A DNA stretch of 62,204 bases. It comes from Candidatus Cloacimonadota bacterium. GTDB taxonomy: Bacteria; Cloacimonadota; Cloacimonadia; Cloacimonadales; TCS61. Shown one piece after another: positions 41,914-47,320 of the stretch (its first letter is position 1; each line of letters starts with the position of its first letter). The notes beneath the pieces are model-generated. The model searched no databases. It saw nothing but the letters and a program-made list of their open reading frames with translations, and was not told the origin of the DNA. The position numbers and the translations under genes were made by a program. The stretch is taken from contig JAIPGO010000011.1 in NCBI GenBank assembly GCA_021736135.1, forward strand, positions 1 to 62,204, written 5' to 3'.

Positions 41914-42162
41914 CTATAAATCAATCCTGAATCGCGCTCCCAGTGCACTATTGGACACTGACAGGCATCCGTGCATGTTATCTTCAATTATGGTTTTTGA
42001 CATATACAGTCCCAATCCTGTACCTTTTTCTTTCGGCTTGGTAGTAAAGTAGGGATCAAAAATTCTATTCATAACATTTGCCGGTATTCCTCCAGCATTG
42101 TCCTCTATTATCAACACAGACTTACTTGTTTTATGTGATTTGTAAGTACAAACTGGGTTCAA
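41914..42162 (-). pseudogene. C-terminal remnant of a histidine kinase
   Basis: About 70 codons encode only the ATPase end of a histidine kinase: SVLIIEDNAGGIPANVMNRI (G1), then EKGTGLGLYMSKTIIEDN (G2) and the final strand ARFRIDL. The H-box and N-box are absent. It is closely similar to the end of the TPR kinase at 33253-35121. The nominal first 12 residues (MNPVCTYKSHKTS) are probably not a real start. The sequence upstream no longer encodes kinase and instead shows another gene scrap. I read it as a truncated, non-functional paralog. Confidence 0.8.
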
Positions 42163-42355: not shown

Positions 42356-45300
42356 TCACCATTCTGGAAATTGCTCTTCTTCAATTATTTTTTTAGCTGT
42401 ATCGATTAATGGTAAGGTTAATATTCCAGGATTTACAGTATCATATTCAATAATTTCTTGTGATTTTTCTCTTGCTAAATCCTTCAATTCGGGGTGCGCA
42501 AGCGAAAGGCTGATATGATTATCAAAAATGCAGTATTTTTTCTTAACTTGGTACTTAATCTCTCCCTCCCAACGATTCAGAATATCTTTGCAAACCGGCA
42601 GTATTTCAGAACTCATTGATTTATACGATATAATTATATTGGAAATTATCAGTCTATTATACATCATCCAATTCTTAATCAAATTCTTAGCAAATTCAGC
42701 CCATTCTTTCTGATGTTGAAATGGGATTCTTAAGATATTATAGAATCTGCGATTTACTCCCTCCCCTCGATTATGACCTGATTTCCAATCTCTGATAATA
42801 TCTGAGATGATTCTATTGCTAAGTTTATGAAAAGCGATGCAATCAAGTGCTCGCCATACTATATTCCAATCAACTTGTCGCCAATTTTGATTGTCCAGTA
42901 ATTCTAGAGCAAAAGTTTTTCCTGAAACCGTCTCCTTTAGAATGGCAAGGCTGACACAGATTATCTGGTTGTTTACAGTCTTAACTTTATTCTTTATCAG
43001 TAATTCTTCAGCAAACGTTTTTCCAATACTCGTCTCTCTAAGAATATCCAGGCAGCTACAAATTATCTGATGTGTTAAAGTTTTTTTTCTGTTCTTTTTC
43101 AGCAATTCTTCAGCAAACGTTTTTCCAATATTCGTCTCTCTAAGAATATCCAGACAGACACAGATTATTTGAATGTTGACAGCTTCAGTTTTATTCTTTT
43201 CCAATAATTCTTCAGCAAACGATTTTCCAATACTCGTCTTTCTAAGAATATCCAGACAGCTACAGATTATCTGATGTGTTAATGCTTTTTTTCTGTTCTT
43301 TTCTAATAATTCTTCAGCACAATTCTTTCCTTCATTTGTCTCTCTAAGAATATTTAGACAATTGCAGATGATTGGATGTGCCAATGCTTTCTCTCTGTTC
43401 TTTTCTAATAATTCTTTAGCATAATTCTTTCCTTCATTTGTCTCTCTAAGAATATCAAGACAGATACAAATCATTTCAAATCTTATAGCTTCAGTTTTAT
43501 CCTTTTCCAATAATTTTTTTGCATATTCTTTCCCCTCAATTGTATCTTTTAATATTTCAAGGCAGTGGCAGATAATTTCATAGCGAATTTCTCTAATTTT
43601 GTTCTTCCCTAATAATTCTTTTGCATATTCTTTACCTTCAATTGTATCTTTTAATATTTCAAGGCAATTGCAGATAATTTCAATGCGAACTTCACTGATT
43701 CTGTTCTTTCCTAATAATTCTTTTGCATATTCTTTACCCTCATCCAAGTCTTTTAATATTTCGAGGCTATTACAGAGAACTGCATGATTAACAACTTCCT
43801 TTTTACTCTTTTCCAAAAATTCTTTAGCAAAACCTTTCCCTGCAATCGTACCCTTTAATATTTCAAGGCTATTACAGAGAACTGCATGATTAACAACTTT
43901 CTTTTTACTCCTTTCCAATAATTCTCTTGCATATTCTATACCTTCACTCGAACCTTTTAATATTCTGAGACAGGTACATATAATATCATTATTAACAATC
44001 TCCTCCTTGTTCTTTTCTAACAATTCTTTTGCATATTCTTTTCCCTCATTCGAATCTTTTAGTATTTCGAGGCAGTTGCAGATAATTTGAAAACGAACTT
44101 CATGATATCTATTCTTTTCTAAAAATTCTCTTGCAAAATCCTTCCCTTCATCCGAACCTTTTAATAATTGAAGGGAAAGGCAGATTAGTGTAAACTGTAA
44201 TTCGTTATCATGATTCTTATTTAACAGTTCTATAGAAAATTCTTTTTTCTTTTTTATTTCCGGATAAAAGTCTTGTGAAAATAAATAATACAAATATGTT
44301 GAATGAGTATTATTCTTATTTAATAATGTATGAATATATTCAAGTTTTTGTTCATCATTTTTAAATATATTGCTTTCAATATCAAAATACGATCTAAGTA
44401 AACAAGAGGCAGTGATATCCTCGCCCTTATCTACGATGATATCAAGCATTTTTCGTTTTATATCAGAATCATATTCCTGCCAGCCTTCCAGTATTGCTTG
44501 ACTGAGTCCTTCTTCTGGTAATAAATCATGATTAAAGACAATCAGTTTTAAACCTGCATACCGTTGATTTAAAAATGCACCATCAGTTAAAGTAATATAA
44601 ATGTTTAAATACTTTCGGGCTATAGAATCACCTGTCTCCAGGTTAAAGTATTTTATGTTGTCGTCCTTTTGGAATGATTCTGCCAGATTTAGAAAACTGT
44701 TCATATCTATAATAATTTTATCGTTCTTATTTACTGAAGCCCAGTAAAAAAGGGCTTTTGCTATTCCAGGATAAATTTCTGCAATCTTTTTTACATCACT
44801 TTTAACAATTTCCCTAAAGTGAGCAATTAGATCATTGAAATCTAATATACTTTCAACTTCAAGACTTTCTGCTATTCGAGCTATAAGGAAAAGTAAAAGA
44901 TAAAGGGTAACATTTTCACTTCCCGGTTTATTTAACACCAGATCAGCAGCCTCTTTCCAGGAAGGAATTTTTTCTGTTATTTTGCTGATTATGTCTTTGT
45001 TCTCACCTGATGTTAATTCAAATGTATTGTGATCGGGATCATAAAGGTAATCCAGGTATTTTTTAGCTTTGATAATTCTATCACCAATTACTATTCTGAT
45101 ATTTTCAAGCTCCATTAATGATTTTAATAAAGTATTAAAACCTGCATTATGACGAGATATCCTATACCAGTCCTCAATTATTATCAAGTACATCTTCTGA
45201 GGGTTGTTTAAGATTTTTCTTGTAGATAGTTCCGAAAACTGTTCCAGATCATTAACCCATAATACAGTAAATTCTTCCATAATACAATCTATTGCCAATC

Positions 45301-46474
45301 TTCTTAATAACGTAGATTTTCCAGAGCCTCCTGATCCGTGAACAACGGCAGATAATCTCATTATCCTTGGTGAAGAAAATGATTCTATTACTCTATTCTT
45401 TATTGTCTTATAATGCCCTCGCTCAATATCCCATCCCATAATAATTCCATACCATTGACAGTTGTAATCTAATTTTGAAGTATAAAAATTTGCCTCAGTA
45501 AAAGAACTATTTATCGATACTCTTTCTTTGAAATCCTTACTTATAATTTCTGCTCCAGGATACGGTACCGCTTCTATTTTCTCCCTGTTATCCGAAAGAA
45601 ACTGAAGAAATTCAACTGCTGAACACTGTATCCATTTCCTGTCTTTGATGTTTTTTTCTATTTCGTATCCATAATCAGGCTTATTATAGTTTATGTTTAT
45701 TATTCTCAGGTCATTTCTCAATCCTCGATCTTCGTTTAAGATAAATGTGTAAACTGTTTGTTCATTAAATTGGCAACCAATAATCAATAAATCCTTTTTA
45801 TGTGTTTTGATATCGTTAAACAGCGAATAATAAAGATGGTTGTCTTTTCCCTGAATTTTTTTCCCATATTGATTATTTGTAAAAACTATATCATTGAATG
45901 TTTTCGCATTTAATATGGAATTGTGAAGATAACCAATTCCTATTTTATATTCACTACTGAAAGTTCCTGCTTCATTATATTGCACTTCATAATCACCTGG
46001 ATTTTCTTTTATTAAAACATCAAGAACATTATCAATATTAAAAGTATAAATTCTTGACCAATTAGGAATTAGAATATTTTGATAAAGCGATATTACTTTT
46101 TCAAAATCCCCTTCGTCAACTAAAAACATTTTTTTAAATTCATTGAATCTCTCTTCTTTCTCCGATTCCGATATTGCTTCATCTTCAATATATTTGTGCC
46201 AGGCATTTGCTGCTGAATTAAAATCTCTTACTTCATCCTTGTTATCAGCATTGGATAAATACTTTTTAGTTAATTCTATAAAATCAGACACTATTGGAAT
46301 AGTATTTTCCTGTGGACATTCTGAGTTAAACCTGTTTTTTATACCAAAACTAAAACCTGCTCCCAGGACTAAGCAATATTTCTCATTTTTTAAATCCTCA
46401 AAGAATGATTGATCATCTAATAAATCTGTCAAAAGCATAGGTTTTGACTTATTTTCGTCCACATTCTTTTTCAT
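42356..46474 (-). CDS. SIR2-STAND NTPase with C-terminal 34-residue repeats, probable single-gene anti-phage protein
   Basis: A 1372-residue protein. Residues about 25-300 are a SIR2 domain: LVLGAGFS (GAG at 38-40), TFNIDN (Asn146, Asp148) and a candidate catalytic His184 in GYLHNS, as in NAD-consuming defence SIR2 proteins. A STAND-type NTPase follows with Walker A GSGGSGKST (380-388) and Walker B LIIIEDW (about 430-436), then a helical region, thirteen exact-length 34-residue repeats (about 753-1194) and a 180-residue cap. SIR2 + STAND + helical-repeat order is that of Avs-like proteins, in which the repeats sense a phage protein and the SIR2 domain then depletes NAD. The start is the ATG after GGGGGG. 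The gene stands alone in an AT-rich island flanked by gene remnants. The anti-phage role is inferred. Confidence 0.88.
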   Translation of the reverse strand: MKKNVDENKSKPMLLTDLLDDQSFFEDLKNEKYCLVLGAGFSFGIKNRFNSECPQENTIPIVSDFIELTKKYLSNADNKDEVRDFNSAANAWHKYIEDEAISESEKEERFNEFKKMFLVDEGDFEKVISLYQNILIPNWSRIYTFNIDNVLDVLIKENPGDYEVQYNEAGTFSSEYKIGIGYLHNSILNAKTFNDIVFTNNQYGKKIQGKDNHLYYSLFNDIKTHKKDLLIIGCQFNEQTVYTFILNEDRGLRNDLRIININYNKPDYGYEIEKNIKDRKWIQCSAVEFLQFLSDNREKIEAVPYPGAEIISKDFKERVSINSSFTEANFYTSKLDYNCQWYGIIMGWDIERGHYKTIKNRVIESFSSPRIMRLSAVVHGSGGSGKSTLLRRLAIDCIMEEFTVLWVNDLEQFSELSTRKILNNPQKMYLIIIEDWYRISRHNAGFNTLLKSLMELENIRIVIGDRIIKAKKYLDYLYDPDHNTFELTSGENKDIISKITEKIPSWKEAADLVLNKPGSENVTLYLLLFLIARIAESLEVESILDFNDLIAHFREIVKSDVKKIAEIYPGIAKALFYWASVNKNDKIIIDMNSFLNLAESFQKDDNIKYFNLETGDSIARKYLNIYITLTDGAFLNQRYAGLKLIVFNHDLLPEEGLSQAILEGWQEYDSDIKRKMLDIIVDKGEDITASCLLRSYFDIESNIFKNDEQKLEYIHTLLNKNNTHSTYLYYLFSQDFYPEIKKKKEFSIELLNKNHDNELQFTLICLSLQLLKGSDEGKDFAREFLEKNRYHEVRFQIICNCLEILKDSNEGKEYAKELLEKNKEEIVNNDIICTCLRILKGSSEGIEYARELLERSKKKVVNHAVLCNSLEILKGTIAGKGFAKEFLEKSKKEVVNHAVLCNSLEILKDLDEGKEYAKELLGKNRISEVRIEIICNCLEILKDTIEGKEYAKELLGKNKIREIRYEIICHCLEILKDTIEGKEYAKKLLEKDKTEAIRFEMICICLDILRETNEGKNYAKELLEKNREKALAHPIICNCLNILRETNEGKNCAEELLEKNRKKALTHQIICSCLDILRKTSIGKSFAEELLEKNKTEAVNIQIICVCLDILRETNIGKTFAEELLKKNRKKTLTHQIICSCLDILRETSIGKTFAEELLIKNKVKTVNNQIICVSLAILKETVSGKTFALELLDNQNWRQVDWNIVWRALDCIAFHKLSNRIISDIIRDWKSGHNRGEGVNRRFYNILRIPFQHQKEWAEFAKNLIKNWMMYNRLIISNIIISYKSMSSEILPVCKDILNRWEGEIKYQVKKKYCIFDNHISLSLAHPELKDLAREKSQEIIEYDTVNPGILTLPLIDTAKKIIEEEQFPEW
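42893..44218 (-). repeat. Thirteen in-frame 102-bp repeats in the SIR2-STAND gene
   Basis: 1326 bp, exactly 13 x 102 bp, each coding a 34-residue helix-turn-helix. Conserved positions are I-I-C-x-C-L-x-I-L-(K/R) in helix A and GKxxAxELLEKN in helix B. Positions 3-10 of each unit vary most. Units 10 and 12 differ at only a few residues, and pairs 4/5 and 6/7 are also close, which suggests recent duplication. A degenerate fourteenth unit follows (NWRQVDWNIVWRALD). Confidence 0.93.
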
Positions 46475-47320
46475 ATTTCCCCCCAATAATACTTTATAGT
46501 TCATAGGAATCTACATTTTCTGGCAATGATTTTTATTCACTGTAAAACAGCAAATATTAATTGCTTTCAGAATATAAAAAAAAGATTTTATGTCAAATTA
46601 TATTCTTAAATCGGACATGCTCCTGAAATTTTAATGATATTTTTCTTATGCCTTTTTAACAAATTATCAGCAAGAAAATCATATCTGAATTCCTCTCATA
46701 ACAAAGTACAGCAATGGCAGGTTATGCTCTTTTAATCCATTTTGTGCAATAGGCGCTTACCACAGATATTCTGACCTTTTTTGGCAGAAAATTCAGCTAA
46801 AACCGGATGGTCACACTCAAATCAGCTTCATTTATTCTTTTCGCGTCTTTCGCGCCTTCCGCGGTTGATAATCTTCTTTTCTAGTTTCGATTTATCCGAG
46901 TCAGGATTTTGCAAATAGTTGTAATCCAGATGTTTCGGAACCACTATTTGAGACCTCCTAACCAGGACAAGCCAGAACCGAAAAAGAAGAATTTGAACCG
47001 CTGATTTTACGGATAGCACGGATAAAAGATAAGAGGATAAGAAATAATAAGATATATATTAGCTGTAAATTCTGATACATTTTGCAAATTAATCGGTAAA
47101 TGACAAAAAGACACATTCCAGGTAGAGCTTTGAAATGAGTTTGAAAGGGTGAATAAAATATTCTGCCAAAAAGTGACAGAATATTATTGGTAAAGTGCAC
47201 AAGCCGGGATCAAAGCGTCTTTGGGAATAAAAAAAAACACTTATCAATGATTATATTGACTTAGCGGTTATCTCCTTAATTAATTAACTAACGGGTCTAT
47301 TCTGAAATTCTCAAAGTAAA
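46475..47320. other. AT-rich spacer upstream of the SIR2-STAND gene
   Basis: About 850 bp without a credible gene. On the minus strand TTGACA (46596-46591) and TATATT 14 bp further could be a poor promoter for the SIR2-STAND gene. Near 46835-46880 are CGCGTCTTTCGCGCCTTCCG-type words, and near 46990-47035 GGATAGCACGGATAAAAG-type words, both common intergenic repeats whose translation is not protein-like. Confidence 0.45.

What the first reader, a model, noticed from the sequence alone, without database searches (positions are those of the whole stretch)
42356..46474. Single-gene SIR2-STAND-repeat protein, candidate new Avs-like defence system
Seen: GAGFS and TFNID SIR2 motifs, a Walker A/B STAND-like core and thirteen 34-residue repeats in one 1372-residue protein, alone in an AT-rich island between gene scraps. 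Known: Avs-type and DSR-type defence proteins join SIR2 NADase effectors to STAND or sensor domains and deplete NAD on phage recognition. Inference: this is a phage-sensing NADase. The short-period regular solenoid as sensor differs from the irregular TPR-like ends of the Avs proteins I know, so it may be a new subtype.
Basis: partly seen in the sequence, partly recalled or inferred. Interest (0 to 1): 0.88.

Follow-up and report, generated by a model that had tools for sequence, protein, structure and literature searches.

The report
SIR2 NADase grafted on STAND receptor
A single bacterial gene joins an enzyme domain predicted to destroy the cell's NAD+ to an immune-receptor switch and a very regular 12-copy helical sensor; it works like the known phage-defence protein Avs5, but its switch and tail come from a different, apparently undescribed receptor family whose known members carry another front end.

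Summary
ORF 42356-46474 (-), 1372 aa, has an N-terminal SIR2 domain, a P-loop STAND NTPase (Pfam nSTAND_NTPase5, 49 bits, cut-off 34) and 12 clear plus 2 decayed 34-residue helical repeats. Pfam does not see the SIR2 domain directly. A profile of 31 SIR2-STAND relatives, built without this protein, scores it 158 bits (E 4e-43; SIR2 part alone 105 bits). The best fold matches are the solved Avs5 filaments. SIR2-STAND-repeat in one gene is therefore a known kind, not a new one.

Two things are new. The STAND core and the C-terminal cap do not belong with Avs5. They form a 99/100-supported clade with six Bacteroidota proteins (about 40-48% identity) that have other N-terminal domains and only irregular repeats. 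So this is an effector swap inside an apparently undescribed receptor family. The repeat array is also far more regular than in any SIR2-STAND relative checked.

Most likely mechanism: the solenoid binds an invader protein, ATP-dependent oligomerisation clusters the SIR2 domains, and NAD+ is depleted. NADase activity and phage sensing are inferred. One caution is that the catalytic HG motif is HN here, and that Gly is invariant in all 31 relatives.

The parts
42356..46474 (-). Coding sequence of the SIR2-STAND-repeat protein (1372 aa, stop included)
   Evidence: Open frame; Shine-Dalgarno-like GGGGGG just upstream of the ATG at 46474
46479..46484 (-). Shine-Dalgarno-like GGGGGG, 4 nt before the ATG
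   Evidence: Sequence
45593..46441 (-). SIR2 domain (aa 12-294)
   Evidence: 104.9 bits to a profile built without this protein; SIR2 fold in the model, target-normalised TM about 0.6 to DSR2 and KomC SIR2 chains
46349..46363 (-). GAGFS NAD-binding motif (aa 38-42)
   Evidence: Gly38 and Gly40 kept in all rows that reach this column
46031..46045 (-). TFNID motif, Asn146 and Asp148
   Evidence: Asn146 and Asp148 invariant in 32 of 32 rows
45920..45925 (-). His184-Asn185, in place of the HG (or NG) motif
   Evidence: Gly at this place in all 31 relatives, Asn only here
45761..45763 (-). Glu238, aligned with a conserved acidic residue (E in 28, D in 4 rows); inferred to match the E202 needed in PaAvs5-1
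   Evidence: PMC12931631 for the PaAvs5-1 mutant
45065..45481 (-). STAND NTPase core (aa 332-470)
   Evidence: PF25199 nSTAND_NTPase5 49.3 bits, cut-off 34; clade with six Bacteroidota proteins, support 99/100
45311..45337 (-). Walker A GSGGSGKST (aa 380-388)
45167..45187 (-). Walker B-like LIIIEDW (aa 430-436)
   Evidence: Identical in L139
45077..45091 (-). VIGDR, possible arginine finger (Arg466)
   Evidence: Identical in L139; role inferred from PaAvs5-1 Arg438 (PMC12931631)
44270..45064 (-). Helical region after the STAND core (aa 471-735)
   Evidence: Aligned with the Bacteroidota family throughout
44156..44257 (-). Decayed first repeat (aa 740-773)
42932..44155 (-). Array of twelve 34-residue helix-turn-helix repeats (aa 774-1181)
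   Evidence: alpha-solenoid in the model, repeat pLDDT mostly 65-85
42830..42931 (-). Decayed last repeat (aa 1182-1215)
42359..42955 (-). Conserved C-terminal cap ending in PEW (about aa 1174-1372)
   Evidence: 57.5 bits to the C-terminus of L147; also L153 and L154
41869..41911 (-). Terminator-like hairpin downstream of the gene
   Evidence: Consensus scan; not evidence of function

Best explanation
This is a one-protein, Avs5-like immune receptor. The C-terminal alpha-solenoid, built from 12 similar 34-residue repeats and closed by a conserved cap, binds an invader-made protein. Binding frees the STAND NTPase to oligomerise with ATP. The clustered N-terminal SIR2 domains then hydrolyse NAD+ and stop the infected cell. 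In origin it is an effector swap: STAND core, helical linker, repeats and cap come from a receptor family found in Bacteroidota with other N-terminal domains, and only the N-terminal domain is of the Avs5-like SIR2 type. Shown: domain identity, motif conservation, the clade, the repeats and their coding constraint. Inferred: NADase activity, oligomerisation, sensing by the array, phage as the trigger, and the direction of the swap.
For: SIR2+STAND profile built without the protein: 157.8 bits, E 4e-43 at Z = 2e7; SIR2 alone 104.9, STAND alone 58. 31 of the 32 aligned rows match SIR2_2 and 29 match nSTAND5. Best fold hits: EfAvs5 9jap (E 7e-16) and AVAST5 filament 9nc9 (6e-14), then SAMD9, ThsA, DSR2. 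Profile hits in the PDB: 9jap 9e-57 and 9nah 8e-53. Catalytic Asn146, Asp148, His184 and Glu238, Walker A and LIIIEDW kept. STAND clade with six Bacteroidota proteins, 99/100. Cap shared. In one of them (L153) a second nSTAND5-type protein lies next to it. In PaAvs5-1 the SIR2 residues and Walker motifs are needed for defence, and the C-terminal repeats for activation (PMC12931631).
Against: The HG glycine is Asn, unlike all 31 relatives, so activity may be altered or lost. No defence gene among ten neighbours. No curated Avs5, DSR or ThsA model matches the protein itself. No ortholog that also carries SIR2 was found, so conservation of the whole architecture cannot be tested. No experiment.
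Confidence: 0.7

Rival explanations
1. The SIR2 domain is catalytically dead or weakened (HN instead of HG) and acts only as a nucleotide-binding or assembly domain, so the protein signals in another way or is a decaying receptor.
For: Gly185 is invariant in 31 of 31 relatives and Asn only here. The gene lies beside a kinase fragment and a multi-copy repeat.
Against: GAGFS, Asn146, Asp148, His184 and Glu238 are kept; the frame is intact over 1372 codons; the repeats show constraint on protein sequence (pN/pS 0.42). The motif tolerates change at the His: NG is about as common as HG among Avs5 proteins (PMC12931631).
Confidence: 0.15
2. A STAND regulator of something other than phage: an anti-plasmid system, a developmental switch, or control of a prophage-like element.
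For: A bacterial CARD-NLR-like system controls release of gene transfer agents (PMC13236601, title and abstract only). No defence-island context here.
Against: Closest solved relatives by profile and fold are Avs5 filaments and other anti-phage SIR2 proteins. Patchy distribution with no ortholog in relatives fits cargo rather than a housekeeping role.
Confidence: 0.1
3. A true Avs5, merely diverged, with no separate receptor ancestry.
For: Same domain order; SIR2 part is of the Avs5-like type.
Against: STAND core groups at 99/100 with six proteins that lack SIR2 and not with any SIR2-STAND row. No match to the Avs5 models of NCBIfam or PADLOC up to E = 1.
Confidence: 0.05

Closest known systems
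Avs5 / AVAST type 5 (SIR2-STAND-repeats; EfAvs5 9jap, filament entries 9nah and 9nc9)
   Same: Domain order, SIR2 catalytic residues apart from HG, STAND NTPase, C-terminal helical repeats; best fold and profile hits
   Different: STAND is nSTAND5 above its cut-off while nSTAND3 stays below its own (22.0 against 27.2 bits); no curated Avs5 model matches; STAND lineage differs; HN instead of HG or NG; 12 regular repeats and 1372 aa against 769-869 aa for the solved Avs5 chains
Unnamed Bacteroidota STAND receptor family (L147, L148, L153-L156)
   Same: STAND core and helical region (about 40% identity over 400 aa to L139, the same protein as L148; up to 48% over the STAND core); C-terminal cap in L147, L153 and L154; weak similarity of the repeats in L148, L153 and L154
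   Different: N-terminal domains are not SIR2; repeats are irregular (best period score 0.76 or less against 3.93 here); genes of most members sit in a shared multi-gene neighbourhood
DSR1/DSR2 and ThsA (SIR2 defence proteins)
   Same: SIR2_2-type NADase domain; lower-ranking fold and profile hits
   Different: No Dsr2 or ThsA model match for this protein; matches to these structures are weaker than to Avs5
nSTAND5 proteins with other effectors (L141, PD-(D/E)XK-like N-terminus; L054, L055, L136, L140, L153:3-2954, Cap4/DUF4297-like N-terminus)
   Same: nSTAND5-type core; L141 also ends in a highly regular 34-residue array
   Different: Nuclease-like N-terminus (read from sequence, no Pfam match); the array of L141 is canonical TPR, while the array here matches no Pfam repeat family

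Membership tests
Avs5 | N-terminal SIR2 domain (Pfam SIR2_2) | tested here: met
   Pfam itself gives no SIR2 hit up to E = 1, but the SIR2 segment scores 104.9 bits to a profile built from relatives that do hit SIR2_2
Avs5 | nSTAND3 NTPase (PF20720), as described for PaAvs5 | tested here: not met
   22.0 bits, below the cut-off of 27.2; nSTAND5 passes with 49.3 bits
Avs5 | C-terminal helical repeat domain | tested here: met
   type differs, no Pfam repeat family
Avs5 | Match to the curated Avs5 model (NF041814 or PADLOC Avs5) | tested here: not met
   No match up to E = 1. The relatives scanned singly also stay far below the NCBIfam cut-off of 1000 bits
Avs5 | STAND core in the same lineage as the SIR2-STAND proteins | tested here: not met
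   Groups with six non-SIR2 proteins, 99/100. The solved Avs5 chains themselves were not in that tree
Avs5 | Infection-triggered filament and NAD+ hydrolysis | not testable with these tools
   Needs experiment
Bacteroidota STAND receptor family (L147, L148, L153-L156) | STAND core with CQWYG-type start and IIIEDW-type Walker B | tested here: met
Bacteroidota STAND receptor family (L147, L148, L153-L156) | Conserved C-terminal cap | tested here: met
   57.5 bits to L147, 29.4 to L153, 23.6 to L154; not detected in L148, L155 and L156
Bacteroidota STAND receptor family (L147, L148, L153-L156) | Same N-terminal domain | tested here: not met
   SIR2 here; the SIR2-STAND profile meets the members over the STAND part only in the alignments that were printed; no clear N-terminal similarity to the window protein
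DSR1/DSR2 | Match to curated DSR models | tested here: not met
   No match up to E = 1
Tetratricopeptide or pentatricopeptide repeats | Match of the array to a Pfam repeat family | tested here: not met
   No TPR or PPR family up to E = 10; fold search finds PPR and HEAT-type solenoids only at low TM-score

The most novel reading that the evidence does not exclude
A modular immune-receptor family, so far undescribed, exchanges its effector while keeping the STAND switch and tail. In this member the sensor has been rebuilt by repeated duplication of one 34-residue unit into a uniform array whose scaffold is fixed and whose nine most variable positions (2, 6, 17-19, 22, 23, 27, 30) may form a binding surface, so the number and order of units could tune what is recognised.
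Probability: 0.35. Interest if true: 0.6.

Novelty: new variant of a known kind. Interest (0 to 1): 0.45.

Why it matters
It gives a natural case of a SIR2 effector joined to a STAND receptor of another lineage, which bears on how modular bacterial NLR-like proteins are. The uniform repeat array offers a simple, editable sensor: units can be removed or reordered to ask how a solenoid recognises its ligand. The receptor family in Bacteroidota, with its shared gene neighbourhood, may be a separate defence system that is open to test.

Tried and rejected
Direct homolog searches with the protein failed in plasmids, phages, viral and genome contigs, because the patterns fell outside the motifs. A seed alignment with the motifs fixed and all other positions X (A1) was made only to steer the pattern choice; its variant motif letters were chosen by hand, and hits were confirmed by tblastn to the real protein. 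It may bias which relatives are found, towards IYT.NID-bearing SIR2 proteins.

A phylum search with PF25199 gave mostly other P-loop proteins. The PADLOC hits PDC-S13 and HerA and the NCBIfam GpsA hit are weak and were set aside. SIR2_2 proteins of the same phylum show no pairwise similarity.

Positive selection in the array was considered: pN/pS at variable positions is 0.86, not above 1, and those positions were chosen after the fact.

Model limits: the N-terminal model has mean pLDDT 68.5 and whole-chain TM-scores of about 0.3 (the domain arrangement is not reliable); the C-terminal model was folded from one sequence (mean pLDDT 59.5). The repeat link to the family is weak: 20 bits for L148 against at most 7.4 in 400 shuffles, and 17 and 13 bits for L153 and L154 without a shuffle control of their own.

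The paper on the EfAvs5 filament (PMC11897194) was not held and is cited through PMC12700824.

Full report
Observation. The frame 42356-46474 (-) encodes 1372 aa. An ATG 30 nt upstream would give 1382, but GGGGGG precedes the inner ATG. The protein divides into SIR2 (about 12-294), STAND core (332-470), a helical region (471-735), twelve clear 34-residue repeats (774-1181) with decayed units at 740 and 1182, and a C-terminal cap.

SIR2 domain. Pfam alone does not report SIR2. Thirty-one relatives from many phyla were found by motif-steered search and tblastn, plus a viral one. Of the 32 aligned rows, 31 match SIR2_2 and 29 match nSTAND5, the query being the one without SIR2_2. A profile of these relatives, without the query, scores it 157.8 bits (E 4e-43 at Z = 2e7), the SIR2 segment alone 104.9 bits and the STAND segment alone 58. 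Gly38, Gly40, Asn146, Asp148, His184 and Glu238 are kept, but Gly185 of the HG motif is Asn, seen in none of the relatives. In PaAvs5-1 the residues N110, D112, E202 and the N of its NG motif are needed for defence (PMC12931631).

Fold. The model of aa 1-750 (mean pLDDT 68.5) has as its best PDB matches EfAvs5 (9jap, E 7e-16), the AVAST5 filament (9nc9, 6e-14), human SAMD9, ThsA and DSR2. A sequence profile of the family gives 9jap 9e-57 and 9nah 8e-53. Whole-chain TM-scores are only about 0.3, so domain identity is supported and the domain arrangement is not.

Receptor family. A draw of 396 genomes from the phylum of a Bacteroidota relative gave L139 (the same protein as L148), whose STAND and following helices are 40% identical to the query over about 400 aa while its N-terminus is not SIR2. 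Further searches gave six members in all. The window protein groups with all six at 99/100 support, apart from every SIR2-STAND row. The C-terminal cap is shared with L147 (57.5 bits), L153 and L154. No other genome of the window's own phylum showed the family: the full protein found nothing in 58 relatives, and the inspected frames over the nSTAND5 cut-off in a 125-genome draw are other proteins. The simplest reading is horizontal gain plus an exchange of the N-terminal effector. The direction of the exchange is not shown.

Repeats. The array is unique in its genome and in a 123-genome draw from the phylum. Among the SIR2-STAND relatives long enough to score, the best periodicity score is 0.25 per position against 3.93 here; longer SIR2-STAND proteins from the Bacteroidota draw reach 0.57. 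In L148, L153 and L154 the repeat profile finds weak matches, so the array is probably an expansion of an irregular ancestral solenoid. Adjacent units reach 85% DNA identity, and units two apart up to 83%, which fits duplication of one and two units. Synonymous divergence is high (pS 0.64 over all pairs), so the array is not very young. Regular 34-residue arrays on nSTAND5 proteins do occur elsewhere: L141 has canonical TPRs and a nuclease-like N-terminus.

Context. No PADLOC hit in ten neighbours. Just upstream lies a 437-bp element with 37-nt inverted ends (46757-47193). The 816-bp upstream region has 67 matches in the same genome, its own place included, which also ties this contig to that genome.

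Mechanism. By homology to Avs5, ligand binding by the C-terminal repeats, NTP-dependent assembly and SIR2-driven NAD+ loss is the best-supported path (PMC12931631; filament dependence of Avs5 as reported in PMC12700824). For this protein every functional step is inference.

Verdict. A new variant of a known kind: it works like Avs5 but fails the Avs5 membership tests for STAND lineage, nSTAND3 and curated model.

Noticed in passing
window 46757-47193: MITE-like element with 37-nt inverted ends (81% complementary); the upstream region holding it has 67 matches across many contigs of the genome.
   Followed up: partly
window 41914-42162 (-): 82-aa ORF that reads as the C-terminal piece of a histidine kinase (GTGLGL box), directly downstream of the gene.
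   Followed up: no
L147, L153, L154, L155, L156: The Bacteroidota receptor genes share a neighbourhood: a 493-613 aa protein, a 250-269 aa membrane-like protein and a 203-280 aa lipoprotein-like protein with a D-x-S-x-S motif recur near them in most of these loci. Possibly a multi-gene system or an insertion hotspot.
   Followed up: partly
L147:3218-3676, L148:7260-7733, L153:7535-8089: A small conserved protein (G-I-T-I-H-N-I-N-G type) lies next to three of the receptor genes, a possible partner.
   Followed up: no
L148:8960-13508: ORFs that read as JAB-domain, ThiF/E1-like and TraG-like proteins lie beside the receptor gene (read from sequence, no profile search).
   Followed up: no
L153:3-2954: A second nSTAND5-type protein, with a Cap4/DUF4297-like N-terminus, lies next to the receptor gene.
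   Followed up: partly
L056: A SIR2-STAND-like protein (821 aa) on a viral contig, beside ORFs that look like portal and terminase genes of a P2-like phage (read from sequence).
   Followed up: no
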